Shown here: piece by piece, positions 25,068-45,731 of the stretch
How the letters are laid out: every line of letters begins with the position of its first letter
Numbering within the stretch: the stretch's first letter is position 1
Origin: Glutamicibacter soli
GTDB lineage: Bacteria > Actinomycetota > Actinomycetes > Actinomycetales > Micrococcaceae
Length of the DNA stretch: 64,000 nt
Assembly: GCF_003309065.1 (NCBI RefSeq)
Contig: NZ_POAF01000005.1
Coordinates: 124,001-188,000, forward strand
Direction of reading: 5' to 3'
Translations under genes and position numbers: made by a program
The notes under the pieces: model-generated
Databases searched by the model: none
The model's input: only the letters and a program-made list of their open reading frames with translations
Told to the model about the DNA's origin: nothing

Positions 25068-25097
25068 TACATACTGACCGTTCGTTCAGTATGTCAG
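25068..25097 (-). promoter_or_regulatory. paaA promoter with PaaR-type operator
   Basis: Read on the minus strand: -35 CTGACA (25097-25092), an 18-base spacer, -10 TATGTA (25073-25068). A near-perfect inverted repeat spans 25070-25093: arms CATACTGA and TCAGTATG around CCGTTCGT. The plus-strand core ACTGACCGTTCGTTCAGT (25073-25090) recurs in variant form before paaI, paaZ and paaJ. A TetR repressor sitting here would directly block RNA polymerase. Confidence 0.72.
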
Positions 25098-25226
25098 AGT
25101 GGGTTCGGTCACGTCAACATCACCACCGAAACCGGCATCGCGCAAGCACCCCAGGCCAGCCAATCGTCCGCTTAAATGCCCCGACACCCGAAAGATGCCC
25201 TTTCGGGTGCCGGGCTTGACTATCTC

Positions 25227-25673
25227 CTAGGCGTTCGACATCGACACGACCGGGGCCTTCCGGCCGAAGACCAGACGGTCCACCGAGTAGGAGCCCGGGC
25301 CGGCCAAGGCCAGAGCCGCGGCAGCGGCAGCCAAGATGGCCACCAGCTCATATCCTCCGTTGTCGACAAAAATGCCGGCAGGAAGGTGGACCAGGAACAG
25401 CGCACCGAGCATATCCAGAGCCAGCAGCCCCGCGGCGACACGGGTCACCACCCCGAGGACCAACGCGATGCCGCCGGCGAGTTCAAGGGTGGCCACGGCG
25501 GAAGCCACTATCGAGGCCAGCGGGACGCCCATTTGCTCGAACGAGGCGGTAGCCCCATCGAGGGTGTACTGGAAAAACTTCTGCCAGCCATGGGCGGCCA
25601 GGATGATGCCGAGCACAACGCGCAGCACCAGCAGGGCGGCGGAGGTCATCGGCGGGTTGTTTCGGGTGGTCAT
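25227..25673 (-). CDS. DoxX-family membrane protein
   Basis: 148 residues, four predicted membrane helices, with HGWQKFFQYTLDG and the pattern GGIALVLGVVTRVAAGLLALDM typical of DoxX/DoxD proteins. ATG 25673 is chosen over an upstream ATG because GGAG precedes it by seven bases. The physiological role of this family is poorly defined; some members work with thiol and oxidative-stress systems. Expressed alone; the neighbouring paa and ABC blocks have their own controls. Confidence 0.85.
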   Translation of the reverse strand: MTTRNNPPMTSAALLVLRVVLGIILAAHGWQKFFQYTLDGATASFEQMGVPLASIVASAVATLELAGGIALVLGVVTRVAAGLLALDMLGALFLVHLPAGIFVDNGGYELVAILAAAAAALALAGPGSYSVDRLVFGRKAPVVSMSNA

Positions 25674-25806
25674 GTCAATCTCCATCGGCGGATCTTCGGG
25701 GATGAGCGGCTTCGCAACAACTCGGGATCAACCCTATGCTTAAAACTTGAAGCTTCAATGATAATTTTCTATGTCGTTCCTGTGGATTGACCCGCACATG
25801 GCAAAA

Positions 25807-25847
25807 CCGCCCGGAAATGAACAATTTTTTTGTTCATTTCCGGGCGG
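25807..25847 (-). terminator. Terminator of the amino-acid ABC pair
   Basis: A perfect 18-bp stem, CCGCCCGGAAATGAACAA (25807-25824) with 25830-25847, and a loop of five T. It stands 40 bp past the ATPase stop codon. Confidence 0.88.
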
Positions 25848-25886
25848 CCTGCGGAATAAAGCGTCGCGACTACGGACGCTGCGTCG

Positions 25887-26642
25887 CTACAGCACCTTGG
25901 ACAGGAAATCCTGGGTGCGGGCCTGCTGCGGGTTGCCGAAGAGGTCCTCCGGCTTGCCCTGCTCGCAGACCACGCCGTCGGCCATGAAGACCACGCGGTC
26001 GGCGACCTCACGGGCGAAGCCCATCTCGTGGGTCACCAGCACCATGGTCATGCCCGAGTCGGCCAGCTCCTTGATCACCTGGAGCACCTCCCCGACCATT
26101 TCAGGGTCCAGCGCGCTGGTGGCCTCGTCGAAAAGCATGATGCCCGGGGACATGGCCAGCGCGCGGGCGATGGCCACTCGCTGCTTCTGGCCGCCGGAGA
26201 GCGAAGCCGGGCGGGCATCTGCCTTCTCCTTCAGCCCCACGCGCTCCAGCAGCTCCAGCGCCTTGGCGCGGGCCTCGGTGCGGTTCATCTTCTTCAGCTC
26301 CACCGGGGCCAGCATGATGTTCTCGGCCACCGACATGTGCGGGAAGAGGTTGAAGTGCTGGAAAACCATACCCACGTGGCGGCGAACCTCGTTGATGTCC
26401 ACCTTCGGGTCGGTCACGTCGAAGCCGTCGACAACCACCGTGCCGGAGGTGATGTCCTCCAGCTTGTTCAGGCAGCGCAGCAGCGTGGACTTGCCCGAGC
26501 CCGACGGGCCGATCACGCACAACACCTCGCCCTCGCGGATCTCCAGGTCGATGCCCTGGAGCACGTTGTTGGATCCGAAGGACTTGTGCAGGTCGGTGAC
26601 CTGGATCTTTACCTGCGAGTTCATCTCGCTTGCGGTGCTCAC
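25887..26642 (-). CDS. Amino-acid ABC transporter ATP-binding protein (GlnQ type)
   Basis: 251 residues from a GTG at 26642 that overlaps the upstream stop codon (GTGA). Walker A is GPSGSGKST (about 43-51), the Q-loop [10 protein letters not shown], signature LSGGQKQR (about 146-153), Walker B MLFDEA (about 167-172) with Ala where Pro is usual, and H-loop VTHE. It energises the fused binding-protein/permease encoded upstream in the same two-gene operon. The substrate is probably glutamine or another polar amino acid. Confidence 0.92.
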
Positions 26643-28105
26643 TTGTTGAACCTCTTATCGGCATAGTTGGCCAGCTTGGTCAGGGCCATGATGGCGACGA
26701 AGTAGATGACGCCCACGATCAGCAGGGTCTCGGTGACGCGGAAGTTCGCCGCGTAGATCTGCTGACCCTGGTAGAGCAGTTCGGCGAAGCCGATGGCCAG
26801 CAGCAGCGAGGAGTCCTTCAGGCTGATGATCAGCTGGTTGATCAGCGACGGGGTCATCATCTTGAAGGCCTGCGGGATCACGACCTTCTGCATGGACTTG
26901 CCGTAGCCCAGGCCCAGCGAGCGGGCGGCTTCCAGCTGTCCCGGATCCACCGACTGGATGCCGCCGCGCACGATCTCGGCCACGTAGGCGCCGGCGTTCA
27001 GCGACAGGGTGAGGATGCCGGCGGTCCAGACGCTGATGTCCCATCCGGTCAGCTGCGGCAGGCCGAAGTAGAACATGAACGCCCACAGCAGCAGGGGGGT
27101 GCCGCGGAAGATGTTCACGAAGGTGGTGGCGATGCCGCGCAGCACGATGTTGCCGGAGATCTTGAAGAAGCCGAAGATCAGGCCCAGCGCCATGGCGATC
27201 GCGAAGGAGATGGCGGTGACGCCCAGCGTATTGCCCAGACCGGTCATCAGCGCGGGGAACGACTTGACCGCCAGGTCGAAGAAGTTGCCAGGAGTGCTGG
27301 CGGTGGGGTCGGCCAGGTACTTGTCCAGGATCTTCTGGTATTCGCCGTTGGCCTTCAGCTCGGCCAGGCCGTCGTTGAAGGCGGCCAGCAGCGCGGTGTT
27401 CTCGCCCTTGTTCACGGCGAAGCCGTAGGAGCCGCCGGGCACCTTGTCGGTGACGGTCTTCAGGCCGTTGCCCTGCGCGATGCCGTAGGCCAGCACCGGG
27501 TAGTCGTCGAAGACGGCGACGGCGGAGCCGGCCTTGACCGACTCGTACATGGTGGCCGACTGGTCAAGGGACTTGACGGTGAAGCCGTACTGCTCGGCAA
27601 TCGACTTCGCGTAGGTCTCGCCTTCGGAACCGGTCTTGGCGACAACGGTCTTGCCCTTGAGGTCCTCGTAGCCCTTGATGGCCTCGTCGTCCTTGGCCAC
27701 CGCCATCTGCACGCCGGACTCGAAGTACGGCTCGGAGAAGTCGTAGATCTGCTTGCGTTCGTCGGTGATCGACATGCCGGCGATGACGCCGTCGACCTGG
27801 TTGGCGGACAGCGCGGCCAGCGCCGCGCTGAAGCCCAGCGAGCGGACTTCGACCTGGAAGCCCTCGTCCTCGGCGATGGCATGGAGGATGTCCATGTCGA
27901 TGCCCGTCAGCTCGCCGTTCTGGCGGAACTCGAACGGGGCGAAGGTGGTGTCGGTGCCGATGACGTAGGTCTGGCCTTCGACGCTGTCGGCGCCCTGGGC
28001 CATGGACGCCGGGGCTCCGACCACCAGCGCCATCAGACCGATGGCCACGCCGGCGATCCACCGGGCAAGGCGACCTGTCCGGGTCGGTGTGTGTTTATTT
28101 TTCAC
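26639..28105 (-). CDS. Amino-acid ABC transporter: fused substrate-binding protein and permease
   Basis: 488 residues in one chain: a signal peptide (residues 1-36, cut after SMA), a family-3 solute-binding domain (about 45-265; [50 protein letters not shown]), then a permease domain (about 285-485) with five spans and the EAA loop [22 protein letters not shown]. The start is GTG 28105. This fusion tethers the binding domain to the membrane and removes the need for a lipoprotein; fused GlnHP proteins are known in Firmicutes and some actinobacteria. The separate binding-protein/permease operon at 5.7-8.2 kb shows the unfused arrangement. Confidence 0.9.
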
Positions 28106-28308
28106 TTATCTCAATCGCTTTCTCATGCTGTAGGGGCGAGTAACCCATGGGGCAGATTGATTCACTCTGCTTGCTAGCCTATGGCCAATGCGCGCATGTC
28201 GAAACCTTTTCCGCCCAACCGAGCGCGTCAGCGCACGAGGTCCTGAAGGCTGTCCGCGCTGAGCTTAGCGGCCTGCCAAACAGCGGACCGGTGGGATTGA
28301 ATAGGTAT

Positions 28309-30468: not shown

Positions 30469-30492
30469 ACACCTACCACCGGAAAGACTGCC

Positions 30493-31506: not shown

Positions 31507-31579
31507 GACTTTTCCCCGCGATAGCCAGCCATTCGCAGACGATTCACCACCAGAACTTGACTTGCCTCACATTTTGTTA

Positions 31580-31601
31580 TTACCTAATGATCGTTCGGTA
31601 A
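31580..31601 (+). promoter_or_regulatory. PaaR-type operator before paaI-paaK-paaR
   Basis: Inverted repeat with TTACC and GGTAA as outer arms; the core ACCTAATGATCGTTCGGT (31582-31599) deviates from perfect symmetry at two pairs. It covers a likely -10 (TAATGAT, 31585-31591) with TTGCCT 17 bp upstream. It resembles the site before paaA and lies 22 bp upstream of the paaI start codon. Confidence 0.65.
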
Positions 31602-31622
31602 ATAATTCGGCGAAGGAAGTCC

Positions 31623-32069
31623 ATGAGCGAAACACAGGTCGAGAAACCTCTTCCGCACGCAATTCTCGAGAATGACTATGCCACGCAGTGGATGGGCATC
31701 GAGGTTGTCGAGGTCTCCGACGGCAAGGCCGTCATCACCATGGAGCTGAAACGGGAGATGCTCAACGGCTTCGGCATCGCCCACGGCGGAATGATCTTCG
31801 CCCTTGCCGATACCGCTTTCGCACTGAGCTGCAACCCTCCCGAGGGGTCGGAGGACACGATCACAGTCGCTTCCGGAGTGGACATCAATTTCCTCAAGCC
31901 GGGCATCCCCGGACGCTTGTTGACCGCATCAGCACGCCGGGTCTCCCAGCAGGGCCGCAGCGGACTCTACGACATCACCGTCACCCAGCCGGGCCGCGAC
32001 GGAGCCACCGAAACGGTGGCCGAGTTCCGCGGGCGCTCACGAACCGTCCCAAAGCCCAAGAGCCGCTAG
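31623..32069 (+). CDS. paaI: Hydroxyphenylacetyl-CoA thioesterase, hotdog fold
   Basis: 148 residues. The hotdog thioesterase helix carries HGGMIFALADTAFALSCN (about 54-71), matching PaaI; the C-terminal strands include VDINFLKPGIPGRLLTASA and SGLYDITVT. PaaI hydrolyses dead-end CoA esters made when phenylacetate degradation stalls, freeing CoA. ATG 31623 is preceded by GAAGGAAG. First of three paa genes (paaI, paaK, paaR) reading in the same direction with short gaps. Confidence 0.92.
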   Translation: MSETQVEKPLPHAILENDYATQWMGIEVVEVSDGKAVITMELKREMLNGFGIAHGGMIFALADTAFALSCNPPEGSEDTITVASGVDINFLKPGIPGRLLTASARRVSQQGRSGLYDITVTQPGRDGATETVAEFRGRSRTVPKPKSR

Positions 32070-32102
32070 ACCTTTCCGCCACCACCACACGAAAGTACGA
32101 GC

Positions 32103-33422
32103 ATGTCACAGAATATCGATCGCGACAGCCTGCCGAATCCGCTGGATGCAGAAGAGACCATGAGCCGTGATCAGATCGAATCGATCCAGCTCACCCGCCT
32201 GAAGGAAACCCTGCACCTGGCCTACGACAAGGTGCCGTACTACAAGGAAAAGTACGACGCAGCCGGTGTGCACCCGAACGACCTGAAGGAACTGGATGAT
32301 CTGAAGATCTTCCCGTTCACCGAGAAGGAAGACCTGCGCAAGACCTACCCGTTCGGCATGTTCGCCGTGCCGCAGCACGAGGTCGCCCGCATCCACGCTT
32401 CCTCGGGCACCACAGGCCGCGCCACCGTGGTCGGCTACACCCAGCAGGACCTGGACGACTGGGCCAAGCTCGGTGCCCGCTGCCTGCGCCTGTCCGGCGT
32501 CAAGCCGGGCTGGAAGGTGCATAACGCCTACGGCTACGGCCTGTTCACCGGTGGCATGGGCGCCCACGCCGCGGCCGAGCGCCTGGGCACCACCGTGATC
32601 CCGATGTCCGGCGGCCAAACCGAGAAGCAGATCACCTTGATCAAGGACTTCGCCCCGGATGCCATCCTGTGCACCCCGACCTACCTGCTGACCATTGGCG
32701 ACGCCATGCAGCGCCAGGGCCTCGACCCGCGCGACACCTCGCTGAAGGTCGCCGTGCTCGGCGCCGAGCCGTGGACCGAGGAAATGCGCCACGAGCTGGA
32801 AGAGATGTTCGGCATCGACGCCTGCGACATCTACGGCCTGTCCGAGGTCATGGGCCCAGGCGTGGCCGGCGAATCACGCGAGCGCAAGGACGGCAGCCAC
32901 ATCTGGGAGGACCATTTCCGCCCGGAGATCCTGGACGCCTACGACCCGACGAAGGTGCTGCCGGACGGCGAGCACGGCGAGCTGGTCTTCACCTCGCTGA
33001 CCAAGCAGGCGCTGCCGATCATCCGCTACCGCACCCACGACCTGACCCGTCTGATGCCGGGCACCGCGCGTCCGGGCCACCGCCGCATGGGCCGCATCAC
33101 CGGCCGCAGCGACGACATGATCATCCTGCGCGGCGTGAACCTGTTCCCGAGCCAGATCGAGGAACTGATCTTGAAGGTGCCGGCCCTCTCCGCGCATTTC
33201 CAGCTCGTGCTCACCCGTCCTGACCGCATGGACCAGCTGGCCGTCAAGGTCGAGCGCCGTTCGGATGCCTCGGCCGAGGACGCGGCCGACGCCGCCAAGA
33301 CCCTGGCCAAGCTGATCAAGATCCATGTGGGTTCCTCCTGCGCCATCGACGTGGTGGATCCGGAGACTCTTGAACGCTCCATGGGCAAGCTCAAGCGCAT
33401 TTACGACCTGCGCAACAGCTAG
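32103..33422 (+). CDS. paaK: Phenylacetate-CoA ligase
   Basis: 439 residues. Adenylate-forming enzyme that activates phenylacetate in the first catabolic step. The P-loop HASSGTTGRATVVGYT (about 97-112), the YGYGLFTGGMG substrate segment, YGLSEVMGPGVAGE and the C-terminal GRSDDMIILRGVNLFPSQIEE hinge are all typical of PaaK; the catalytic Lys lies in the final MGKLKRI. Follows paaI by 33 bp. Confidence 0.95.
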   Translation: MSQNIDRDSLPNPLDAEETMSRDQIESIQLTRLKETLHLAYDKVPYYKEKYDAAGVHPNDLKELDDLKIFPFTEKEDLRKTYPFGMFAVPQHEVARIHASSGTTGRATVVGYTQQDLDDWAKLGARCLRLSGVKPGWKVHNAYGYGLFTGGMGAHAAAERLGTTVIPMSGGQTEKQITLIKDFAPDAILCTPTYLLTIGDAMQRQGLDPRDTSLKVAVLGAEPWTEEMRHELEEMFGIDACDIYGLSEVMGPGVAGESRERKDGSHIWEDHFRPEILDAYDPTKVLPDGEHGELVFTSLTKQALPIIRYRTHDLTRLMPGTARPGHRRMGRITGRSDDMIILRGVNLFPSQIEELILKVPALSAHFQLVLTRPDRMDQLAVKVERRSDASAEDAADAAKTLAKLIKIHVGSSCAIDVVDPETLERSMGKLKRIYDLRNS

Positions 33423-33454
33423 CCGTCACGGAGACGTGAAATAATCGAGGAATT

Positions 33455-34084
33455 ATGCAGACAACCCCAGCAGTGACCCCACCGGTCAAACGCGGCCGTC
33501 CCGGTTACGACCAGGAAACCGTGCTCCAGACCGCCGTCGAGGCGTTCAACGAGTACGGCTACGATGCAACCTCGATGGGCAAGCTCGCCGACCGGCTGGG
33601 CATCAGCAAGTCGGCGATCTACCACCACGTCCCCTCCAAGGAGGATCTGCTGCGCCTGGCGCTGGACGAGGCGCTGATCCCGCTGGAATCCATGATCGAG
33701 CAGGTGCACGGGCATGAGGGAAACGCCGACGAGCGCCTGGAATTCTTCCTGCGCTCCACGGTGCGCATCCTGATCGCCAAGCGTTCCTACGTGACCTTGC
33801 TGCTGCGCCTGCGCGGGAACACGGAGCTTGAGCGCGCCGCGCTGCAGCGCCGACGCCAGATGGACCGCGAACTCTCGCAGTTGGTGACCTTGGCGCAGCG
33901 CGAGGGTCAGCTGCGCGAGGACCTGGAGCCTCGCGCCACCGCCCGCCTGCTGTTCGGCATGATCAACTCGGTGGTGGATTGGTACCGCCTGGACGGCGTG
34001 ATTGATGCGGTGACCTTGGAGAACCAGGCGATTTCGCTGCTGTTCAATGGCCTGCATGCGCTGCCCGAGGACCAGACCTCCTGA
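33455..34084 (+). CDS. paaR: TetR-family repressor, probable PaaR of phenylacetate catabolism
   Basis: 209 residues. The N-terminal DNA-binding domain (helix-turn-helix LADRLGISKSAIYHHVPSKE, about 43-62) is followed by an all-helical effector domain with no further recognisable motif. It follows paaK by 32 bp, and copies of a TetR-like inverted repeat occur before paaA, paaI, paaZ and paaJ, so it is the obvious regulator. In related systems the inducer is phenylacetyl-CoA; this is inferred from the family. Start ATG 33455 has GAGGAAT just upstream. Ends before a clear terminator. Confidence 0.85.
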   Translation: MQTTPAVTPPVKRGRPGYDQETVLQTAVEAFNEYGYDATSMGKLADRLGISKSAIYHHVPSKEDLLRLALDEALIPLESMIEQVHGHEGNADERLEFFLRSTVRILIAKRSYVTLLLRLRGNTELERAALQRRRQMDRELSQLVTLAQREGQLREDLEPRATARLLFGMINSVVDWYRLDGVIDAVTLENQAISLLFNGLHALPEDQTS

Positions 34085-34274: not shown

Positions 34275-35000
34275 GTGGAATCAATTATTGATAGTCTCTT
34301 CCAGCTGTCCTTGAGCACCAGCTCTGGCGTGCAGATCCTGCTGTTCGCGATCAGCGCCCTGTTCGTGGTCATCGCCGCGTTGCTGCTGGCGCACCGCAAC
34401 GACCTGGGCTGGTGGGCCCTGATCATGGCGGTATTCTCCGGACCGATCATCAGCGCCATGAAGTACGACCTGTACGCGCTGTTCTACGGCGTCCCGCTGC
34501 TTCTGCTGGCGATCTTCGGACTGTGGCGCTTCTCCCGATTCGAGCTCAAGGGCAAGTTCATCCGCATGGTGACCCGCACCCAGCTCACCGTGACCTCGGT
34601 GGTCGGCCTGCTGGCCGGCATCATCCTGCTGGTGGCCCTGCACTTCAACGTCTTCCTGTTCAACGGCAGCTACCTGAGCGCCACCCCGGAAGTCTGGGCC
34701 ATGTACGTTTCCGACGCGGTGATCTTCGCGTCCTTCGTGCTAATCGCCCGCGGCGTGCGCAGTGGCTGGCTGCTGCTGGCCGCCGGCGCGATCTCCTATG
34801 TCGTGGTGTATTTCCTGGTCAGCCCGATGCTGGGCATGTTGGGCCTGTACGTGTTCACCGCCCTGGCGGCACTGTACGGCTGGTATCAGTGGCGCGCGCT
34901 GCCCGCGGCCTCGCAGCCGGAACCGACCCAGGAAGAGATCGCCCTGGAAGCAGCCGCCAAGGCCGCCTTGGACAAGCTGAACTCCGCAGACGACAAGTAA
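34275..35000 (+). CDS. PnuC-like membrane transporter of nicotinamide-ribose type
   Basis: 241 residues, six to seven membrane helices, from GTG 34275 with weak AAGAAG upstream. Two halves repeat a Trp-rich ending: GLWRFSRF after helix 3 and ALYGWYQWRAL after the last helix; ALYGWYQW closely resembles the conserved end of PnuC nicotinamide riboside transporters. The middle is less conserved, so substrate assignment is uncertain. A charged C-terminal tail (EPTQEEIALEAAAKAALDKL) is predicted to be helical and cytoplasmic. It stands alone between two strong terminators and is probably unrelated to paa. Confidence 0.65.
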   Translation: MESIIDSLFQLSLSTSSGVQILLFAISALFVVIAALLLAHRNDLGWWALIMAVFSGPIISAMKYDLYALFYGVPLLLLAIFGLWRFSRFELKGKFIRMVTRTQLTVTSVVGLLAGIILLVALHFNVFLFNGSYLSATPEVWAMYVSDAVIFASFVLIARGVRSGWLLLAAGAISYVVVYFLVSPMLGMLGLYVFTALAALYGWYQWRALPAASQPEPTQEEIALEAAAKAALDKLNSADDK

Positions 35001-35084: not shown

Positions 35085-37208
35085 TCAGCCCTGCCAGTTG
35101 GCGTAGGTGGAATCGGTCTTCTCCACCAGGGTCAGCACGTCGTAGGTGGCCACGATCTCGTCGTTCTGGTTGTGCAGCACGGCGTCCCAGGCGACCTCTC
35201 CGTACTCGTCGGTCACGCGTGGGGTGATCTTCTTGGCGGTCAGGGTCACGCGGATCGAGTCCCCGGCACCGACCGGGGTGATGAAGCGCAGGCTCTCCAA
35301 GCCGTAGTTGGCCAGCACGGGTCCCGGAGCGGGCTCCACGAACAGCCCCGCGGCCCAGGAGACCAGCAGGTAGCCGTGGGCCACGATGCCCGGGAAGAAC
35401 GGGTTGGCTTCGGCGGCCTTCGCGTCGGTGTGCGCGTAGAAGGTATCGCCGGTTTCATTCGCGAACGCGGTGATTTCCTCGAGGCTCACCTCGCGCAGGT
35501 CCGAAACGAAGCCGTCGCCGATCTTCAGCTCGGCCAGCGACTTGCGGAACGGGTGCACGTTCGAGGCCTGACCGCCGAACTTCTCGCAGCCGGCCAGCGA
35601 CTGGGCCGCGCCGGTGTGCCACACGCCGGTCAGGGCAGTGAGCATGTTCGGGGAGCCCTGCACCGCGGTGCGCTGCATGTGGTGCTTGACCGAACGCACG
35701 CCGCCCAGTTCCTCGCCGCCGCCGGCGCGGCCCGGGCCGCCGTGGACCAGGTGCGGCACCGGCGAGCCGTGGCCCGTGGTGCTGCGCGCGGTTTCGCGGT
35801 TCAGGATGTGCACGCGGCCGTGGTGGCCTGCAATGCCCAGCGAGAGCTGGCGCATGGCTTCGGCGTCATTGGTGCAGACGGTGGCGACCAGCGAGCCGGC
35901 GCCCAGCGCGGCCAGGGCCACAGCCTCGTCCACGGTGTCGTAGCCGACCACGGAGCTGACCGGGCCGAAGGCTTCGCGGGAGTGCAGGATCGGGTTGCGG
36001 GCGTCCTCCCAGCGCAGCACCATCGGGGCCATGAAGGCGCCCTGCTCGGCCACTGCGTCGGTGTCCGGGGCCACGCGGACCTTTGGCGCGTCCAGCGCGC
36101 CGTAGGCCAGCTCGCCGCCGGCGGCCAGCATATCCTCGACCGCGGCGCGCACGTCGCGCAGCTGGTCAAGGGAGGCCAGCGCGCCCATGGTCACGCCTTC
36201 GACGCGCGGGTCGCCGACGACCACGCGCTCGTCGATGCGCTTGCCGATGGCTGCGATGACCGCGTCCACCTGGCCGGCCGGAACGATGTTGCGGCGGATG
36301 GCGGTGCACTTCTGGCCAGCCTTGGTAGTCATCTCGTTGACGACGACCTTGATGAAGGCATCGAACTCCGGGGTGCCTTCCACTGCGTCAGGGCCAAGGA
36401 TGGCGGCGTTCAGCGAGTCGGTCTCGGCGCTGAAGCGCACGCCGCCGTCGACGACGTTCGGATGGGCCTTCAGCTTGCTGGCGGTGGCCGCCGAGCCGGT
36501 GAACGCGAACATGTCGCGGTAGTCCAGGTGGTCCATCAGGTCGCGGGCCGAGCCGGAGAGCAGCTGCAGCGAGCCGTCCGGCAGCAGGCCGGAGTCGAGC
36601 ATCAGGCGCACCACCGCTTCGGTCAGGTAGCCGGTCGGGGTGGCGGGCTTGACGATGGTCGGCACGCCGGCGATGAAGGCCGGGGCGAACTTCTCCAGCA
36701 TGCCCCAGACCGGGAAGTTGAAGGCGTTGACCTGGACCACGACACCGGTCAGCGCGGTGTAGATGTGGGTTCCCAGGAACGAGCCGTCCTTGCTCAGCGG
36801 CTCGGTCGGGCCGTCGAGGATGACGTTGGAGTTGGGCAGTTCGCGGCGGCCCTTGCCGGAGAAGGTGAACAGCACGCCGATGCCGCCGTCGATGTCCACC
36901 ATGGAATCGATCTTGGTGGCGCCGGTCTTGTAGGAGATCTCGTAGAGCTCCTTGCGGTGCTCGTTGAGGTGCAGGGCCAGCTCCTTGAGCTTCAGCGCAC
37001 GCTCATGCAGCGAGAGCTTGGCCAGTTCGCGCTGGCCGGTGGTGCGGCCGTAGGCTACGGCGCCGGCCACATCGAGGCGGTCCTTGGTGACGGTGGCGAG
37101 CAGTTCGCCGGTGTTGGCATCAAGTACTTCGGTGCCTCCCTCGGCTGCTGGGGTCTGCCATTGACCGGCAATGAAACTTGGGACTACACCAATCTGGGCT
37201 GTCGTCAT
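35085..37208 (-). CDS. paaZ: Bifunctional oxepin-CoA hydrolase / 3-oxo-5,6-dehydrosuberyl-CoA semialdehyde dehydrogenase
   Basis: 707 residues in two domains. The aldehyde dehydrogenase domain (1 to about 520) has catalytic Glu262 (FSAETDS) and Cys301 (GQKCTAIRRN), with cofactor strand IVKPATPTGY. The C-terminal domain (about 540-700) is an R-specific hydratase/MaoC-type fold (HTDAKAAEANPFFPGIVAHG), which opens the oxepin ring. The released aldehyde is oxidised by the same polypeptide before it can cyclise. ATG 37208 with AAGGAA ten bases before it. A PaaR-type operator lies directly upstream, shared with the divergent thioesterase gene. Confidence 0.95.
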   Translation of the reverse strand: MTTAQIGVVPSFIAGQWQTPAAEGGTEVLDANTGELLATVTKDRLDVAGAVAYGRTTGQRELAKLSLHERALKLKELALHLNEHRKELYEISYKTGATKIDSMVDIDGGIGVLFTFSGKGRRELPNSNVILDGPTEPLSKDGSFLGTHIYTALTGVVVQVNAFNFPVWGMLEKFAPAFIAGVPTIVKPATPTGYLTEAVVRLMLDSGLLPDGSLQLLSGSARDLMDHLDYRDMFAFTGSAATASKLKAHPNVVDGGVRFSAETDSLNAAILGPDAVEGTPEFDAFIKVVVNEMTTKAGQKCTAIRRNIVPAGQVDAVIAAIGKRIDERVVVGDPRVEGVTMGALASLDQLRDVRAAVEDMLAAGGELAYGALDAPKVRVAPDTDAVAEQGAFMAPMVLRWEDARNPILHSREAFGPVSSVVGYDTVDEAVALAALGAGSLVATVCTNDAEAMRQLSLGIAGHHGRVHILNRETARSTTGHGSPVPHLVHGGPGRAGGGEELGGVRSVKHHMQRTAVQGSPNMLTALTGVWHTGAAQSLAGCEKFGGQASNVHPFRKSLAELKIGDGFVSDLREVSLEEITAFANETGDTFYAHTDAKAAEANPFFPGIVAHGYLLVSWAAGLFVEPAPGPVLANYGLESLRFITPVGAGDSIRVTLTAKKITPRVTDEYGEVAWDAVLHNQNDEIVATYDVLTLVEKTDSTYANWQG

Positions 37209-37222
37209 CGACGCAATTCCTT

Positions 37223-37240
37223 CCTGAACGGTCGGTCAGT
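37223..37240. promoter_or_regulatory. PaaR-type operator in the paaZ / thioesterase divergent promoter
   Basis: On the minus strand ACTGACCGACCGTTCAGG; the core CTGA...TCAG (37224-37239) is symmetric at six of eight pairs. It lies 15 bp upstream of the paaZ ATG and 60 bp before the thioesterase ATG at 37300, so it may control both. Confidence 0.65.
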
Positions 37241-37299
37241 ATTAGTGTTAACCATAACAGCAATGACGTGATCGACGACACCCGTAAAGGACCGTGAAA

Positions 37300-37728
37300 A
37301 TGACCGACGTACAGCACCAGGCCCAGAACCTCGAACCGTGGACGATTGAGCTGGGCGAATTGGACCGCAAGATGGGTGTGCGCATCATCGAGGAGTCCGT
37401 GGACAAGGTGGTGGCCACCATGCCGGTGGAAGGCAACACCCAGTCCTTCGGGCTGCTGCACGGCGGCGCCTCGCTGGCAGTAGGTGAAGCGGTGGGCTCC
37501 TGGGCCGCCGTGAAATTCGCCTCGACCTTCGGCAAGGTCGTGGTGGGAGTCGACGTCAACGCGACGCACCACCGCTCGGCCACCGAAGGGCTGGTCACCA
37601 TCACGGCCACGCCGATCAAGCTGGGCCGGCGCATGACCAGCCACGAAGTGCTCATCACCGACGAGCAGCAGCGCCGCATCTGCACCCTGCGCATCACCAA
37701 CCTGGTGGTGGATAAGCCCAAGCACTAG
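37300..37728 (+). CDS. Second PaaI-like hotdog thioesterase
   Basis: 142 residues; the thioesterase helix LLHGGASLAVGEAVGSWAAV (about 50-69) and VGVDVNATHHRSATEGLVTITATPI identify the hotdog PaaI/YdiI-type fold. ATG 37300 is preferred over an in-frame GTG two codons earlier because AAAGGA would be too close to the latter. The divergent arrangement with paaZ and the shared operator point to a role in phenylacetate catabolism, but YdiI-type enzymes (DHNA-CoA thioesterase of menaquinone synthesis) also look like this, and no menI/menH is seen elsewhere in the window. Confidence 0.85.
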   Translation: MTDVQHQAQNLEPWTIELGELDRKMGVRIIEESVDKVVATMPVEGNTQSFGLLHGGASLAVGEAVGSWAAVKFASTFGKVVVGVDVNATHHRSATEGLVTITATPIKLGRRMTSHEVLITDEQQRRICTLRITNLVVDKPKH

Positions 37729-38164: not shown

Positions 38165-38176
38165 GTTTTTCTCCTT

Positions 38177-39218: not shown

Positions 39219-39249
39219 GCCCCGAGCCTACAGTTCGATTGCGGCTCTG

Positions 39250-39978: not shown

Positions 39979-39985
39979 GAGTCCA

Positions 39986-40040: not shown

Positions 40041-40062
40041 GTCTATCTAAGGAGGGGTACCG

Positions 40063-41021: not shown

Positions 41022-41035
41022 CCCCAGACGGACGG

Positions 41036-41073
41036 CAGCCCGCTGACCCGGGATCCTCCGGGTCGGCGGGCTG
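41036..41073. terminator. Bidirectional terminator between RIO kinase and acetate channel genes
   Basis: CAGCCCGCTGACCCGG (41036-41051) pairs with 41058-41073 through 16 pairs with one G-T, loop of six. The stops are at 41021 (plus) and 41103 (minus). Confidence 0.85.
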
Positions 41074-41102
41074 TCGTCGTTTGCGGTCTGCTCAGCTGCG
41101 GG

Positions 41103-41717
41103 CTACTTGGCCCACATCGGCAGCACCTCGCGCTTCCAAGTGGCGTTGGTGACGACGGCGCAGGAACCGTACGCGGCCAGTGCCGCGGTGACCAGGCCCA
41201 GCCAGCCGCCGAGCTCGTGGATCAGCTGGTTGCCGGTGAACGCGCCGATGGTCAGCGCGACGAAGGCGGTGCACAGCACGGTGAACACGGTAACCAGGAC
41301 CCCATTGGTTTTCAGCGAGGCGATGGTCATGTAGATGGTGAAGAGAGTCCAGCCCAGCAGGTAGACGCCCATGCCGACGGATCCCACGGCGGCGGCGATT
41401 TCAGGGTTGCTCTCGATCCACCAGAAGCCCATCCAGAACATTCCGTAGGAGGTGAAGGCGGTGGCCCCGAAGACGTTGCCCTTGAAGAATTCAATGACGC
41501 CGGCAATGATCTGTGCAATGCCGCCGTAGAAGAACGCCAGCGCCAGGACCGCGAAACCGGCCTCGGGAATCAGCCCGGCATTGGCCAGGCTCAGCACGAA
41601 GGTGGTCATGGCGAAGGCGCCCAGGCCGAGGGCCGCCGGATCGGCAATAGCGGTCTTGGCGGCTGGCTGTTCGCGCAGCGGCAACTCCAGGTCCGGGCGG
41701 GTCAGGGTTGCAGTCAT
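41103..41717 (-). CDS. satP: Acetate/succinate uptake protein, GPR1/FUN34/YaaH family
   Basis: 204 residues with six membrane helices. The N-terminal DPAALGLGAFAMTTFVLSLA replaces the canonical NPAP-LGL motif of the family; FYGGIAQIIAGVIEFFKGN and SYGMFWMGFWWIE are diagnostic. It takes up acetate (and succinate in SatP) through a hexameric channel. ATG 41717 has GGAG eight bases before it. Divergent from a RamA-like regulator of acetate genes, with two CRP-type sites in between. Confidence 0.9.
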   Translation of the reverse strand: MTATLTRPDLELPLREQPAAKTAIADPAALGLGAFAMTTFVLSLANAGLIPEAGFAVLALAFFYGGIAQIIAGVIEFFKGNVFGATAFTSYGMFWMGFWWIESNPEIAAAVGSVGMGVYLLGWTLFTIYMTIASLKTNGVLVTVFTVLCTAFVALTIGAFTGNQLIHELGGWLGLVTAALAAYGSCAVVTNATWKREVLPMWAK

Positions 41718-41841
41718 GGGGCACACTCCGATGTGTAGTTGTACGGAATAATCGTCGGGCGGTGACCTGCGTCACCAACTCTCCTGCAGGTATCCTAGGG
41801 AGGCAGTGAGACGCGTCACTACCATCTAAAGGAGGTAGCAG
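41718..41841. promoter_or_regulatory. Divergent satP/RamA-like control region with two CRP/GlxR-type palindromes
   Basis: Two similar 16-bp palindromes, GGTGACCTGCGTCACC (41761-41776) and AGTGAGACGCGTCACT (41805-41820), share GTGA-N6-TCAC, the core of Crp/GlxR sites, and are 44 bp apart (about four helical turns). The downstream one ends just before AAAGGAGG of the regulator gene. Known acetate regulons of Corynebacterium place GlxR and RamA at such genes; here this is inference. Confidence 0.6.
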
Positions 41842-42699
41842 TTGACCACCGATTCCTTGCCCCAGGTGGCCCTGCTGGAGCGTACTCTGAACACCCTGGC
41901 CGCCCGCACCGGCTTCCCCGTGGCCTTCGGCGGCTTCGCGGAATCCGGCGGCACGGTGCTGACAAGTTTCGCCGGCACCCGCACCGGCGCGTTGCGCGGA
42001 TTGGTGATCCAGCCCGGACAGGGGCTGGGCGGGCTTGCCCTGGCCCGCCGGGAGCTGACGGCCACCGGGGCTTACCAACAGTCCCCCGACATCATCCACA
42101 GCTACGACCGGGAGATCGGCGTGGAAGGGATCATCACCCTGCTGGCGATCCCCGTGGTGGTCGACAACCAGGTGCGCGCATTGATCTACGCCGGGCTGCG
42201 CGACCGTTCCCAGCTCACGGATGAAACGCTGGCCGCCGCGGCCGGCGAGGCGCGGCGCCTGGCCTGGGAACTGTCGGTCCACGAGGAGACCGAACGTCGT
42301 CTGGCGGTGCTGTCCGCCTCGGAGGCCCACGCCACCCACGCCTCGGATCTGGCGTTGAGCCAGGAGGACCTGACAGTGCTGTACACCGAGCTGCGCGACA
42401 TCGCCCGGCTGATCGAGGATCCGGAATTGGCGCAGCGATTGAGCACCGCGGGATCCATGCTGCGCGCCGGGCAGCCGCGCGAGGTCGCCGGTTCACGCGG
42501 CGCGGGCCCGCTGTCGCCCCGGGAGCTGGATGTCCTCACCCACTTGGCGCTGGGCAAGCGCAACGCGCTGATCGGTGCGCACCTTGACCTGGCCGAGAGC
42601 ACGGTCAAGAGCTATATCGCCTCGGCGATGCGCAAGCTGGAGGCAGCCAACCGCTTCGATTTGGTGCTGCGGGCCCGAAGCCGCGGCCTGATTCCCTGA
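41842..42699 (+). CDS. GAF-LuxR regulator resembling RamA of acetate metabolism
   Basis: 285 residues from a TTG at 41842, six bases after AAAGGAGG. An N-terminal GAF-like sensory domain (about 15-150; GLVIQPGQGLGG, IITLLAIPVVVDNQVRALIY) is followed by a linker and a C-terminal LuxR helix-turn-helix (LSPRELDVLTHLALGKRNAL...ESTVKSYIASAMRKL, about 223-270). RamA-type proteins have this order and activate acetate uptake and activation genes. The divergent satP gene supports that role. Confidence 0.85.
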   Translation: MTTDSLPQVALLERTLNTLAARTGFPVAFGGFAESGGTVLTSFAGTRTGALRGLVIQPGQGLGGLALARRELTATGAYQQSPDIIHSYDREIGVEGIITLLAIPVVVDNQVRALIYAGLRDRSQLTDETLAAAAGEARRLAWELSVHEETERRLAVLSASEAHATHASDLALSQEDLTVLYTELRDIARLIEDPELAQRLSTAGSMLRAGQPREVAGSRGAGPLSPRELDVLTHLALGKRNALIGAHLDLAESTVKSYIASAMRKLEAANRFDLVLRARSRGLIP

Positions 42700-42719
42700 A
42701 ACGCGCGCCGGATATGCGA

Positions 42720-42743
42720 AAAGGGCCGCTTGCGCAGCCCTTT
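42720..42743. terminator. Hairpin between the LuxR-type gene and paaH
   Basis: AAAGGGC (42720-42726) pairs with GCCCTTT (42737-42743), with an inner CGC/GCG stem. The stops are at 42699 (plus) and 42770 (minus). Confidence 0.65.
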
Positions 42744-42769
42744 CCATCGGTTGTCGTGCTCTTGGGTTC

Positions 42770-43642
42770 CTACCAGGTGTAGAAGCCCTGTCCGGTCTTG
42801 CGGCCCAGCTTGCCCTCGGCCACCAGGTCCTTGAGGATCTGCGGCGGAGCGAAGCGGTCGCCAAGGGTTTCGTGAAGGTATTCGGCAATGCCCAGGCGCA
42901 CATCCAAGCCCACGATGTCGGTGGTCTTCAGCGGGCCAGTCGGGTGCTTGTAACCCAGCACCATCGCGTTGTCGATGTCCTCGGCGCTGGCCACGCCCTC
43001 TTCGACCATGCGCATGGCTTCCAGCGCGATGGCCACGCCCAGGCGGGAGGAGGCGAAGCCCGGGGCGTCGTTGACCACCACTGCGGTCTTGCCCAGCGCG
43101 GAGACCCAGCCGCGCGAGGCGTCAACCAGCTGCGGGTTGGTCTGCTTGCCGATGACGACCTCGATCAGCGTGGACGCCGGGACCGGGTTGAAGAAGTGCA
43201 GGCCCAGGAAGTTCTGCGGGCGCGCCAGTTTCTCGGCCATGCCGGACACGGACAGCGAGGAGGTGTTGGAGGCCAGCACGGCGTCCTGGGACAGCTCGGC
43301 TTCCACCGCCTGCAGCGAGAAGATCTTCAGGTCCCAGATTTCCGGGACGGCTTCGATGACCAGCTGTGCCGAGGCGAAGTCGGCGTAGTTGGTGCTCACG
43401 GCGAAGCGCGCCAGCAGCTGCTCGCGGGTTTCGCTGACCGCGCCGCGGGCGATGGATTTGTCCACGGACTCCACCACGCGCTCGTAGGCGCCCTTGGCGG
43501 ATTCCTCGTCGCGCTCAACCACGGTCACGGCGCTGCCGCTGACCAAAAAGCCGTGGGCGATGCCGGCGCCCATGCGCCCGCCGCCGAGCACGCCCATGGT
43601 GGCAGGCAGGGCGCCGTCGATAAAGTTTGTCGCTTCACTCAT
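42770..43642 (-). CDS. paaH: 3-Hydroxyacyl-CoA dehydrogenase (3-hydroxyadipyl-CoA dehydrogenase)
   Basis: 290 residues from ATG 43642. The NAD-binding fold has GVLGGGRMGAGIAH (17-30) and the acidic end VVERDEE; catalytic HFFNPV follows the conserved region LGLHFFNPVPASTLIEVV. The last part, KHPTGPLKTTDIVGLDV, is typical of the C-terminal dimer domain. Oxidises (S)-3-hydroxyadipyl-CoA in the phenylacetate route; hydroxybutyryl-CoA is an alternative substrate. Last of three genes paaJ-paaF-paaH on this strand. A longer in-frame extension overlaps paaF and is not real. Confidence 0.93.
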   Translation of the reverse strand: MSEATNFIDGALPATMGVLGGGRMGAGIAHGFLVSGSAVTVVERDEESAKGAYERVVESVDKSIARGAVSETREQLLARFAVSTNYADFASAQLVIEAVPEIWDLKIFSLQAVEAELSQDAVLASNTSSLSVSGMAEKLARPQNFLGLHFFNPVPASTLIEVVIGKQTNPQLVDASRGWVSALGKTAVVVNDAPGFASSRLGVAIALEAMRMVEEGVASAEDIDNAMVLGYKHPTGPLKTTDIVGLDVRLGIAEYLHETLGDRFAPPQILKDLVAEGKLGRKTGQGFYTW

Positions 43643-43644
43643 GC

Positions 43645-44439
43645 TTACTTCTTCTTTCGGTCTAGGAATGCCTGCATGCGGTCGAACTTGGCCTGGGACT
43701 CGAAGAGCATGCCCTGGGCCAGGTTGTCGATGATCGGGTGCACCTCGCGCGGGGTGTGGAAGACCGACTTGCTGATGCGCACTGCCAGCGGGTCCTGCGC
43801 GGCGATGCGGTCGGCCAACGCGTCGGCGGCGGCGTCCAGCTCGGCGGCCGGGTGCAGCTCGGTGATCAGCTGGACTTCCAGGCACTGCGCTCCGGTGAGC
43901 ACCTTGCCGGCCAGCAGGATCTCCTTGGCCAGCGGCTCGCCGACCAGTTCCTTCAGGCGCCAGGTCGCGCCGGCGGCGGCCATGATGCCCAAGTTGGTTT
44001 CAGGGTTGCCCATGCGCAGATCCTCGGTGCCGATGCGGAAGTCTGCCGCGTAGGCCAGTTCCGCGCCGCCGCCCAGAGCGAAGCCGTCAAGCGCGGCCAC
44101 CACGGGCATCGGCAGCTTGGCGATGCGGTCGAAGATGCCGGAGTTGATGCCTGCCAGCGCGTCGTCGCGGCGGCGCTCGCGCAGCTGCGCGATGTCGGCG
44201 CCGGAGGCGAAGATGCCCTTGGAGCCGCGCGGTTTTTCCTCGGTCGGCGCGGTGCCGGGGGTGCCGGCCAGGATCATGATCTTCGGGGTGCGCTCAAGGT
44301 AGGCGCAGACCGCGTGCAGTTCGTCGACCATGACCTGGTCGATCGCGTTGCGGACCTCGGGGCGGTGCAGGCGCACCCACACGCGGTCATCGGTCTCGGT
44401 GATCTGCAAGGTGGTGAAGTCTTCGGGAGTCAGGCTCAT
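43645..44439 (-). CDS. paaF: 2,3-Dehydroadipyl-CoA hydratase (enoyl-CoA hydratase)
   Basis: 264-residue crotonase-fold enzyme. The oxyanion-hole segments are GIFASGADIAQL (about 76-87) and DGFALGGGAELAYAADF (about 117-133); the hydratase acid region reads GNPETNLGIMAAAGATWRL, with Glu present. It hydrates dehydroadipyl-CoA between PaaZ and PaaH. The insertion APTEEKPRGSKG before the first CoA loop is longer than usual. Lies 4 bp after the thiolase gene and 2 bp before paaH. Confidence 0.88.
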   Translation of the reverse strand: MSLTPEDFTTLQITETDDRVWVRLHRPEVRNAIDQVMVDELHAVCAYLERTPKIMILAGTPGTAPTEEKPRGSKGIFASGADIAQLRERRRDDALAGINSGIFDRIAKLPMPVVAALDGFALGGGAELAYAADFRIGTEDLRMGNPETNLGIMAAAGATWRLKELVGEPLAKEILLAGKVLTGAQCLEVQLITELHPAAELDAAADALADRIAAQDPLAVRISKSVFHTPREVHPIIDNLAQGMLFESQAKFDRMQAFLDRKKK

Positions 44440-44443
44440 GGAG

Positions 44444-45667
44444 TTAGACGCCCTCCACCAGCAGGGCGGTGCCCTGGCCGACTCCCACGCACATGGTGGC
44501 CACGCCGAGCTTGCGCTCGGCTCCGGCCAGTTCGCGCTCCATGCGGCCCAGCAGGGTGATCACGATGCGCGAGCCAGAGGAGCCCAGCGGGTGGCCCAGG
44601 GCGATGGCGCCGCCGTCGCGGTTCACGATGGACGGGTCCACGCCCAGCTCGTTCATGCTGGCCAGCGACTGGCTGGCGAAGGCCTCGTTGATCTCCATGG
44701 CGCCGATGTCCGAGATGGACAGGCCCGCGCGGGAAAGCACCTTGTTGGTGGCCGGGACCGGGCCCATGCCCATGATCTCCTGTGCCAGGCCGGCGGCCTG
44801 GCCGTCGACGATGCGGGCGCGCGGGGTCAGCCCGTACTTCTGGATGGCACGCTCGGAAACCACCAGGATGGCCGAAGCGCCGTCGTTCAGGGTCGAGGCG
44901 TTGCCGGCGGTGACCACCGAGCCGCCCTTGACGACCGGGCGCAGACCGGCCAGCACCTCGGCGGTGGTGCCCGGGCGCGGGCCCTCGTCGGTGTCGACGA
45001 TCGTGTCGCTCTTGCGGCCCTTGACGGTCACCGGGACGATCTCGTCCTTGAAGCGTCCGGCCTCGATGGCGGCGATGGACTTGGCGTGCGATTCCACCGC
45101 GAACTGGTCGGCGTCCTCGCGGGAGATGTTGTAGACGCGGGCGACTTCCTCGGCCGTCTCCGGCATGGAGTAGGTGGCCTTGCCGTCGCGGGAAAGCTCC
45201 CCGGACAGGAAGGCGGGGTTGGTGAAGCGCCAGCCGATGGAGGTGTCGAAGGTGGCGCCCGGCTTGGCGAAGGCCTTGGCAGGCTTCTCCATGACCCATG
45301 GGGCGCGGGACATGGATTCCACGCCGCCGGCTACCACGATGTCCGCGGCGCCGGACTTGACCATGTGGCTTGCCATGGTGATGGCGCTCATGCCAGAGGC
45401 GCATAGGCGGTTCACGGTGATGCCCGGAACCGTGTTCGGCAGGCCGGCCAGCAGCCATGCCATGCGGGCCACGTTGCGGTTTTCTTCGCCGGCGCCGTTG
45501 GCGTTGCCGAAGATGACTTCGTCAACCAGCTCCGGATCGATGCCTGCGTCGTCGATGACGCGGCGGATCGTCAACGCCGCCAGGTCGTCCGGACGCACGC
45601 TGCTCAGCGCTCCGCCGTACCGTCCAACTGGGGTACGTGCTCCGCCTACGAGAAATGCCTCGGCCAT
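44444..45667 (-). CDS. paaJ: Thiolase, probable 3-oxoadipyl-CoA/3-oxo-5,6-dehydrosuberyl-CoA thiolase
   Basis: 407 residues from ATG 45667 with AAGGAG five bases upstream. The nucleophile is Cys89 in NRLCASGMSAI; His and the second Cys are in GGAIALGHPLGSSG and MCVGVGQG near the C-terminus. Length and motifs fit degradative thiolases; the order with paaF and paaH and the paa-type operator upstream favour PaaJ, although acetyl-CoA acetyltransferases look alike. First gene of the paaJ-paaF-paaH operon. Confidence 0.9.
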   Translation of the reverse strand: MAEAFLVGGARTPVGRYGGALSSVRPDDLAALTIRRVIDDAGIDPELVDEVIFGNANGAGEENRNVARMAWLLAGLPNTVPGITVNRLCASGMSAITMASHMVKSGAADIVVAGGVESMSRAPWVMEKPAKAFAKPGATFDTSIGWRFTNPAFLSGELSRDGKATYSMPETAEEVARVYNISREDADQFAVESHAKSIAAIEAGRFKDEIVPVTVKGRKSDTIVDTDEGPRPGTTAEVLAGLRPVVKGGSVVTAGNASTLNDGASAILVVSERAIQKYGLTPRARIVDGQAAGLAQEIMGMGPVPATNKVLSRAGLSISDIGAMEINEAFASQSLASMNELGVDPSIVNRDGGAIALGHPLGSSGSRIVITLLGRMERELAGAERKLGVATMCVGVGQGTALLVEGV

Positions 45668-45713
45668 GATTGCTCCTTGCGACAAAAAGTAGTGATGCTC
45701 AGCACTCTAACTT

Positions 45714-45731
45714 ACCGACCATTCGTTCAAT
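45714..45731 (-). promoter_or_regulatory. PaaR-type operator before paaJ
   Basis: Plus-strand core ACCGACCATTCGTTCAAT matches the paaA site at 15 of 18 positions. On the minus strand a TTGAAC hexamer inside it is a candidate -35. The site lies 47 bp upstream of the paaJ ATG and 274 bp before the divergent MHS transporter start. Confidence 0.62.

What the first reader, a model, noticed from the sequence alone, without database searches (positions are those of the whole stretch)
25070..45731. One TetR-type operator joins four dispersed phenylacetate blocks into a regulon
The sites before paaA (25073-25090), paaI (31582-31599), paaZ (minus strand, 37223-37240) and paaJ (45714-45731) align to ACYGACCNNNCGTTCRGT. 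Each lies 15-50 bp upstream of a start codon; at paaA the core fills the spacer between -35 CTGACA and -10 TATGTA. The only TetR gene in the window (33455-34084) follows paaK. Family knowledge: PaaR-type TetR repressors respond to phenylacetyl-CoA.
Basis: partly seen in the sequence, partly recalled or inferred. Interest (0 to 1): 0.7.

Follow-up and report, generated by a model that had tools for sequence, protein, structure and literature searches.

The report
PaaR operators of phenylacetate genes
A soil-type bacterium probably switches its scattered phenylacetate-breakdown genes with one short DNA signal and one repressor; the pattern is real and widely kept in related bacteria, but it is a further case of a known regulator, with one extra likely target (a transporter gene) elsewhere in the genome.

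Summary
Four 22-bp palindromic sites lie 5' of paaA, paaI-paaK-TetR, paaZ and paaJ at the stated places. With a 22-bp pattern the genome shows one further good copy, on another contig, 28 bp before an MFS transporter gene: five operators, not four. The paaZ and paaJ sites also sit between divergent genes (a 4HBT thioesterase, an MFS transporter).

Comparative evidence ties sites to the TetR gene. The motif comes out unaided upstream of paaA, paaZ, paaI and paaJ in relatives. A matrix trained without paaI recovers the paaI site; internal paa genes lack it. Over 120 genomes TetR and PaaA agree in all but 2; the operator (up to 1 mismatch) is in 104 of the 112 with PaaA and none of the 8 without. 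Sites accompany the TetR in 20 of 20 hand-picked loci outside the family. The motif is of the published PaaR class. Binding, repression and phenylacetyl-CoA sensing remain inferred.

Unexpected: the paaI operator is a fixed off-consensus variant, TTACCTAATGANC[A/G]TTCGGTAA, set 17-18 bp behind a TTGAC box. New member of a known kind; moderate-to-low interest.

The parts
25071..25092 (.). PaaR-type operator before paaABCDE (minus strand), ATACTGACCGTTCGTTCAGTAT, in the spacer of -35 CTGACA / -10 TATGTA
   Evidence: 35.4 bits; site found in 50 of 50 distinct paaA upstream regions, home one included, and 30 of 30 in a second, overlapping set
20412..25043 (-). paaA (24057-25043), paaB (ORF 23765-24121), paaC (22908-23768), paaD (22370-22867), paaE (21213-22493) and an enoyl-CoA hydratase gene (20412-21197); some starts uncertain
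   Evidence: NCBIfam TIGR02156, 02157, 02158, 02159, 02160 over cut-off; ECH_1
31580..31601 (.). Variant operator TTACCTAATGATCGTTCGGTAA before paaI-paaK-paaR, 17 bp behind TTGACT (31557-31562)
   Evidence: 22.0 bits with a matrix not trained on paaI; TTACCTMATGA present in 73 of 80 named loci; TTGAC at spacing 17-18 in 70 of 73 distinct blocks; home spacing checked
31623..32069 (+). paaI, hydroxyphenylacetyl-CoA thioesterase family
   Evidence: TIGR02286 121.8 bits, cut-off 118.9
32103..33422 (+). paaK, phenylacetate-CoA ligase
   Evidence: TIGR02155 629.4 bits, just under cut-off 646.3
33455..34084 (+). TetR-family regulator, PaaR orthologue of this family
   Evidence: TetR_N and TetR_C_24; 112 of 120 family genomes
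35085..37208 (-). paaZ bifunctional ring-opening enzyme
   Evidence: TIGR02278 1014.5 bits, cut-off 562.8
37221..37242 (.). Operator between divergent paaZ (minus) and 4HBT thioesterase (plus)
   Evidence: 30.8 bits; over 8 bits in 45 of 47 and 55 of 60 paaZ upstream regions
37300..37728 (+). 4HBT thioesterase gene divergent from paaZ, probably in the regulon
   Evidence: PF03061; site upstream in 16 of 17 and 36 of 38 regions
42770..45685 (-). paaJ-like thiolase (44444-45667 or 45685), paaF-like hydratase (43645-44439), paaH-like 3-hydroxyacyl-CoA dehydrogenase (ORF 42770-43885, start uncertain)
   Evidence: best models 3-oxoadipyl-CoA thiolase, PaaF and hydroxyacyl-CoA dehydrogenase, each under its equivalog or subfamily cut-off
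45712..45733 (.). Operator between divergent paaJ (minus) and an MFS transporter gene (plus)
   Evidence: 26.9 bits; over 8 bits in 11 of 12 and 19 of 19 paaJ upstream regions
45894..47435 (+). MFS transporter gene divergent from paaJ; possibly controlled by the same site (about 161 bp away)
   Evidence: MFS_1 / Sugar_tr; ProP-type models under cut-off; 7 of 7 upstream regions keep the site

Best explanation
The TetR protein 33455-34084 is PaaR. As a dimer it binds a 22-bp palindrome that overlaps the promoters of paaABCDE, paaI-paaK-paaR, paaZ and paaJFH in the window, and of an MFS transporter gene elsewhere in the genome, and keeps them off (shown here: sites, conservation, co-occurrence; inferred: binding and repression). 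When phenylacetate enters and basal PaaK makes phenylacetyl-CoA, that thioester binds PaaR and frees the promoters (taken from published PaaR proteins, not tested here). Because paaR lies behind paaI-paaK and an operator, the system is probably self-repressing. The paaZ and paaJ sites probably also control the divergent thioesterase and transporter genes.
For: Unaided dyad counts upstream of orthologues: ACCG-N2-CGTT at 46 of 50 paaA, ACTGACCG at 33 of 47 paaZ, TACC-N2-ATGA at 43 of 48 paaI, TTAC-N8-CGTT at 11 of 12 paaJ, each 0.0 in shuffles. Matrix trained on paaA/Z/J over 8 bits at the held-out paaI 48 of 48 (38 of 48 above 5 bits when limited to the nearest 80 bp), paaA 50 of 50, paaZ 45 of 47, paaJ 11 of 12; controls paaB 0 of 47, paaC 0 of 43, paaE 0 of 13, ECH 0 of 17, paaF 0 of 13, paaH 0 of 10, paaK 4 of 65, paaR 2 of 63. 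Second, overlapping set: paaA 30/30, paaZ 55/60, paaI 74/74, paaJ 19/19; paaB, C, E, F, H, K, ECH and pnuC-like 0 of 225 together; paaR 13/80. Over 120 family genomes TetR and PaaA each in 112, both lacking in 7, discordant in 2 (Fisher p 1e-9); operator at up to 1 mismatch in 104 genomes, in none of the 8 without PaaA; reversed pattern 0 in all 120. Transporter operator in 28 of the 30 best-scoring orthologues. Published PaaR operators ACCGACCGGTCGGTT (Burkholderia) and CNAACGNNCGTTNG (Thermus) (passages).
Against: No binding or expression data. Recognition of these sites by this TetR rests on association; another TetR outside the window could bind the same class. The paaI site departs at a position that is G in all 106 half-sites of the distinct paaA, paaZ and paaJ sites. 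Eight genomes with PaaA have no operator at up to 1 mismatch. PaaZ upstream lacks the site in 2 of 47 and 5 of 60. Short 18-bp patterns do not beat controls genome-wide. The best solved relative is an uncharacterised protein, SCO3833. Sequences of the characterised PaaR proteins were not fetched, so orthology to them was not tested.
Confidence: 0.92

Rival explanations
1. The TetR next to paaK controls only its own operon through the variant paaI site, and the other sites (paaA, paaZ, paaJ, transporter) belong to a different TetR regulator encoded elsewhere.
For: The paaI operator differs from the paaA, paaZ and paaJ sites at a position that is G in all their 106 half-sites, and scores lowest as a class (leave-one-out median 19.8 bits against 22.3-27.7).
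Against: Its right half is consensus in the home genus, it is recovered by a matrix that never saw it, and outside the family the same TetR goes with consensus-type sites before paa genes. TetR, PaaA and consensus-type operator are missing together in 7 of the 8 PaaA-less genomes.
Confidence: 0.05
2. The sites are a generic TetR-like or chance palindrome without role in phenylacetate control.
For: With 18-bp patterns at 2 mismatches the genome scan does not beat its controls.
Against:: placement before the first gene of each unit, zero or near zero at internal genes, zero in genomes lacking PaaA, reversed 22-bp pattern absent from all 120 genomes.
Confidence: 0.01
3. PaaR acts as an activator or mixed regulator, not a simple repressor.
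For: At paaI the operator starts where the -10 box should lie rather than in the spacer, and no test here fixes the sign of control.
Against: Operators overlap likely promoters or lie just before the start; published PaaR proteins repress (passages).
Confidence: 0.04

Closest known systems
PaaR of Burkholderia cenocepacia (BCAL0210)
   Same: TetR repressor of dispersed paa units; inverted repeat ACCGACCGGTCGGTT between -35 and -10; in its matrix scan the paa repeats score highest, other hits over 17 are judged false positives, and the repeat before the regulator's own transcript scores lower, 12.0 (passages and section 8 of PMC2770484; operator letters from PMC9493321 passages)
   Different: There the regulator sits in a separate transcript after paaABCDE; here it ends the paaI-paaK operon, the operator is extended by WWA flanks, and an MFS transporter is a likely target
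PaaR of Thermus thermophilus (TTHA0973)
   Same: Operator CNAACGNNCGTTNG with the AACG-NN-CGTT core; controls operons with paaI and the ligase and with paaABCD; phenylacetyl-CoA is the ligand (passages of PMC9493321 and PMC6651687)
   Different: Two main operons; flanks differ
PaaR of Corynebacterium glutamicum and Streptomyces pristinaespiralis
   Same: Actinobacterial TetR repressors of paa; S. pristinaespiralis putative site AACGA-N4-TCGGT (passages of PMC10933834). The C. glutamicum motif ACTNACCGNNCGNNCGGTNAGT is recalled, not seen (no hit)
   Different: Gene order; the Streptomyces paper is not held and the Corynebacterium one was not looked up
PaaR annotation in Arthrobacter and other actinomycetes
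   Same: A 2026 survey says PaaR predominates in the actinomycete group that includes Arthrobacter (passages of PMC13186573)
   Different: The words 'operator' and 'binding site' do not occur in its main text

Membership tests
PaaR (TetR-type phenylacetate repressor) | TetR fold: TetR_N helix-turn-helix plus ligand domain | tested here: met
   PF00440 56.0 bits, PF17932 71.9 bits
PaaR (TetR-type phenylacetate repressor) | Encoded with the phenylacetate pathway and lost with it | tested here: met
   Behind paaK in the window; TetR and PaaA 111 together, 7 both absent, 2 discordant of 120
PaaR (TetR-type phenylacetate repressor) | Palindromic operator of the ACCGAACG-NN-CGTTCGGT class before paa units | tested here: met
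   class compared with published sites by eye
PaaR (TetR-type phenylacetate repressor) | Operator also before its own transcription unit | tested here: met
   31580-31601, variant form; that paaI, paaK and paaR are one transcript is inferred from spacing
PaaR (TetR-type phenylacetate repressor) | Represses paa genes | not testable with these tools
   no expression data
PaaR (TetR-type phenylacetate repressor) | Released by phenylacetyl-CoA | not testable with these tools
   no ligand data
PaaR (TetR-type phenylacetate repressor) | Sequence orthology to a characterised PaaR (Thermus, Burkholderia, Corynebacterium) | not tested
   those sequences were not fetched; no molecule named PaaR is among the PDB hits shown (60 of 137, 33)
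PaaX (GntR-type phenylacetate repressor) | PaaX gene beside the paa units | not tested
   no PaaX model was among the matches of the ORFs scanned, but not every ORF was scanned

The most novel reading that the evidence does not exclude
The paaI-paaK-paaR operator is not a decayed copy but a separately selected, promoter-fused variant (left half TTACCTAATG, 17-18 bp behind TTGAC) that gives the unit that makes the inducer its own leakiness, while paaABCDE and paaZ carry near-consensus sites: a graded operator scheme, fixed across much of the family, in which supply genes (ligase, perhaps the transporter) switch at lower phenylacetyl-CoA than ring-opening genes.
Probability: 0.3. Interest if true: 0.5.

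Novelty: new member of a known kind. Interest (0 to 1): 0.32.

Why it matters
It gives a well-supported operator matrix and target list for a catabolic regulon across the Micrococcaceae, adds a transporter on another contig, a thioesterase and a second transporter as likely members, points to SCO3833 (structure 2IAI) as a likely Streptomyces PaaR, and offers an operator variant whose function can be tested in a reporter.

Tried and rejected
Candidates not kept because their scores lie within the random range (up to 15.6): C18:157632 (7.4 bits), C25:18062 (11.5 bits), L023 (10.1 and 8.5 bits); C11:622020 has 3 mismatches and was not scored. A strict ranking of operator strength was considered: leave-one-class-out medians are paaA 27.7, paaZ 25.2, paaJ 24.0, transporter 22.3, paaI 19.8, but in the home genome paaI (24.7) is level with paaZ (24.8), and a matrix score is not an affinity. 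Conservation of the paaA -35 box is poor beyond the nearest relatives. In one search several paaI hits lie more than 80 bp away and are probably the divergent paaA operator; restricting to the last 80 bp leaves 38 of 48 above 5 bits. The sets share some genomes, and both were drawn from best-scoring loci, not from all 112 genomes. The paaR upstream hits (2 of 63; 13 of 80) were not followed. Papers: only passages, one section (PMC2770484, section 8) and search listings were seen; the RegPrecise listing was not read further.
Full report
WHAT IS THERE. The window is part of a 3.84-Mb genome (contig C21:124001-188000) of a Micrococcaceae, most likely Glutamicibacter: the genome G023, placed by the tool in the same genus, has 94% PaaR identity on a contig of 172984 bases, which matches in length and identity the Glutamicibacter protophormiae record. 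The paa genes are in four units. Minus strand: paaABCDE plus a hydratase (25043 down to 20412), paaZ (37208-35085), and a thiolase/hydratase/dehydrogenase set called paaJ, F, H here (45685-42770). Plus strand: paaI, paaK and the TetR gene (31623-34084). PaaABCDE, PaaI and PaaZ pass the curated cut-offs; PaaK (629.4 against 646.3 bits) and the J, F, H names fall below theirs and rest partly on context.

CHECK OF THE OBSERVATION. All four sites exist. In the window the pattern with up to 3 mismatches gives 14 strand matches against 5.92 expected (largest shuffle 12). In the whole genome at 2 mismatches it gives 28 against 36 for the reversed control, and the related pattern ACYGAMCGNNCGKTCRGT gives 26 against 44, so an 18-bp consensus cannot define the regulon. 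The 22-bp palindrome WWACYGAMCGWWCGKTCRGTWW can: with up to 3 mismatches the genome has 7 places, the control 1; the five with 0 to 2 mismatches are the four reported sites and C4:31622-31643. Matrix scores are 35.4 (paaA), 30.8 (paaZ), 26.9 (paaJ), 22.5 (C4) and 22.0 (paaI); a genome's worth of Markov-random sequence has 15.6 at most.

A FIFTH TARGET. The C4 site TAACTGTCCGAACGGTCGGTAA ends 28 bp before the ATG of a 456-residue MFS transporter. Relatives of this protein at E <= 1e-100 are found in 106 of 120 family genomes, and 28 of the 30 best-scoring ones, which were fetched, have a site over 17 bits in the 200 bp upstream (misses L226 and L231). From the coordinates, picked by hand and the gaps computed, the best match lies within 20 kb of paaA, paaZ or paaK in 26 of the 106. 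This makes it a good candidate for a phenylacetate importer, by association only.

PHYLOGENETIC TEST. Upstream regions were taken from loci that encode relatives of the window proteins (199 loci; duplicates removed, home sequences included). Counting all 4+4 dyads without any prior motif, top words are ACCG-N2-CGTT at paaA (46 of 50), ACTGACCG at paaZ (33 of 47), TACC-N2-ATGA at paaI (43 of 48) and TTAC-N8-CGTT at paaJ (11 of 12), each 0.0 in shuffles. A matrix refined on paaA, paaZ and paaJ exceeds 8 bits at paaA 50/50, paaZ 45/47, paaJ 11/12, and at the held-out paaI 48/48, of which some are probably the neighbouring divergent paaA operator (38 of 48 when limited to 80 bp and 5 bits). The thioesterase opposite paaZ has it in 16/17 and the transporter opposite paaJ in 7/7. 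Other genes: paaB 0/47, paaC 0/43, paaE 0/13, hydratase 0/17, paaF 0/13, paaH 0/10; paaR 2/63; paaK 4/65, those four being loci L130-L133 with a site 24-39 bp before paaK itself. A second set, the best 80 named loci, overlapping the first in part, gives paaA 30/30, paaZ 55/60, paaI 74/74, paaJ 19/19, thioesterase 36/38, transporter opposite paaJ 1/1; paaB, C, E, F, H, K, hydratase and pnuC-like genes 0 of 31, 31, 13, 32, 19, 73, 15 and 11; paaR 13/80.

CO-OCCURRENCE. Of 120 family genomes the TetR is in 112 and PaaA in 112; 111 have both, 7 neither, G054 has only the TetR and G067 (82% complete) only PaaA (Fisher p 1e-9). The 22-bp operator at up to one mismatch is in 104 of 120 genomes, in none of the 8 without PaaA, and missing at this stringency in 8 genomes that have PaaA (G019, G044, G047, G071, G090, G091, G103, G116); the reversed pattern is in none of the 120 (p 1.5e-8). 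Genomes are related, so these p values overstate independence. More widely, 59 of 197 genomes drawn from the class have the protein at E <= 1e-25, 57 of them outside the family. I fetched the surroundings of 20 of those 57, chosen by hand: all 20 hold a site over 15 bits, two of them (15.7 and 15.8) no better than the random maximum; in 16 the best one lies within 120 bp of the estimated start of a paa gene or of the TetR gene itself, and in the other 4 (large genomes, family f22) it lies about 1.5 kb before the TetR gene, ahead of a dehydrogenase gene, with paaABC within the 20 kb in 3 of the 4.

THE REGULATOR. TetR_N and TetR_C_24 domains. No second TetR was found in the window by a family profile over all six-frame ORFs; the nearest other hit is a Put_DNA-bind_N/CoA_binding protein. 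In 24 aligned relatives down to 48% identity the stretch KSAIYHHV is invariant, in keeping with the shared operator. The nearest solved structure is SCO3833, 2IAI, E 1.6e-65 with the family profile. No paper of the held library mentions SCO3833. Together with the f22 loci this suggests, but does not show, that 2IAI is a PaaR.

HOW IT PROBABLY WORKS. At paaA the operator fills the 18-bp spacer between CTGACA and TATGTA; the same can be read at paaJ (TTGTAT-18-TAAGTT, by eye). Binding there would block RNA polymerase. At paaI the operator starts 17-18 bp behind TTGAC in 70 of 73 distinct blocks, so it covers the expected -10 position instead. Published PaaR proteins are repressors released by phenylacetyl-CoA (passages); I carry that over by family knowledge. 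Since paaK makes the inducer and sits in a unit with an operator, some basal expression is needed for induction.

THE ODD OPERATOR. The paaI site is TTACCTAATGAACATTCGGTAA in 49 and TTACCTAATGATCGTTCGGTAA in 15 of 74 loci. The sixth base of the half-site is G in all 106 half-sites of the 53 distinct paaA, paaZ and paaJ sites, T in 2 of 42 of the transporter sites, and T in 8 of 26 half-sites of the 13 distinct paaI sites, on their left side; outside the family A occurs there at some paa sites (L356, L357). The paaI site is the most palindromic class (median 9 of 11 pairs) with the lowest matrix score. A lower-scoring repeat before the regulator's own transcript is also reported for Burkholderia cenocepacia (12.0, while the paa repeats top a list cut at 17.0; section 8 of PMC2770484). 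Whether this is a weaker operator, a -10 box fused to a half-site, or both, cannot be decided from sequence.

KNOWN OR NEW. PaaR regulons, their operator class, ligand and the spacer position are published. For this genus no paper on its phenylacetate regulation stood out in the listing of one search (Glutamicibacter, phenylacet, regulator: 14 papers, 10 listed, titles and abstract starts only); a search for PaaR with Arthrobacter gave 7 papers, of which only the 2026 survey looked relevant. I therefore call it a new member of a known kind. The details I did not see in print are the fifth operator before a transporter, the divergent thioesterase and transporter, and the fixed paaI variant; no search was made for these details as such.

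Noticed in passing
G000 contig C4:31622-33039 (L182:3623-5043): A fifth operator 28 bp before an MFS transporter gene outside the window; the best matches to that protein lie within 20 kb of paa genes in 26 of 106 family genomes.
   Followed up: yes
window 31557-31571 (and relatives): TTGA-N6-TCACA overlaps the -35 region of paaI in the window and in 18 of 73 distinct upstream blocks; it resembles a CRP/GlxR-type site (motif recalled), perhaps catabolite control.
   Followed up: no
L316 (WNZI01000012.1): A record titled Vibrio cholerae strain 35D carries an Arthrobacter-type PaaR locus (59% identity); the record is probably mislabelled or contaminated.
   Followed up: no
L352-L355: In large-genome relatives the TetR orthologue follows a 3-hydroxyacyl-CoA dehydrogenase gene with the operator ahead of it, near paaABC in 3 of 4; SCO3833 (2IAI) may be this protein.
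   Followed up: partly
L072, L077, L078, L130-L133 (genus g20): In one genus paaK has its own site (GTACCGAATGTTCGGTAAGTAA type) and three of its four genomes carry two TetR matches: possible regulator duplication.
   Followed up: no
window 34275-35000: A NMN_transporter (PnuC-like) gene follows paaR after a gap; no operator over 8 bits in 0 of 11 upstream regions, that is none of 11.
   Followed up: partly
window 349-1752, 57743-58414 and 61924-62367: Other regulators in the window: PucR-type, Put_DNA-bind_N/CoA_binding (Rex-like) and ArsR-type; not linked to the paa genes here.
   Followed up: no
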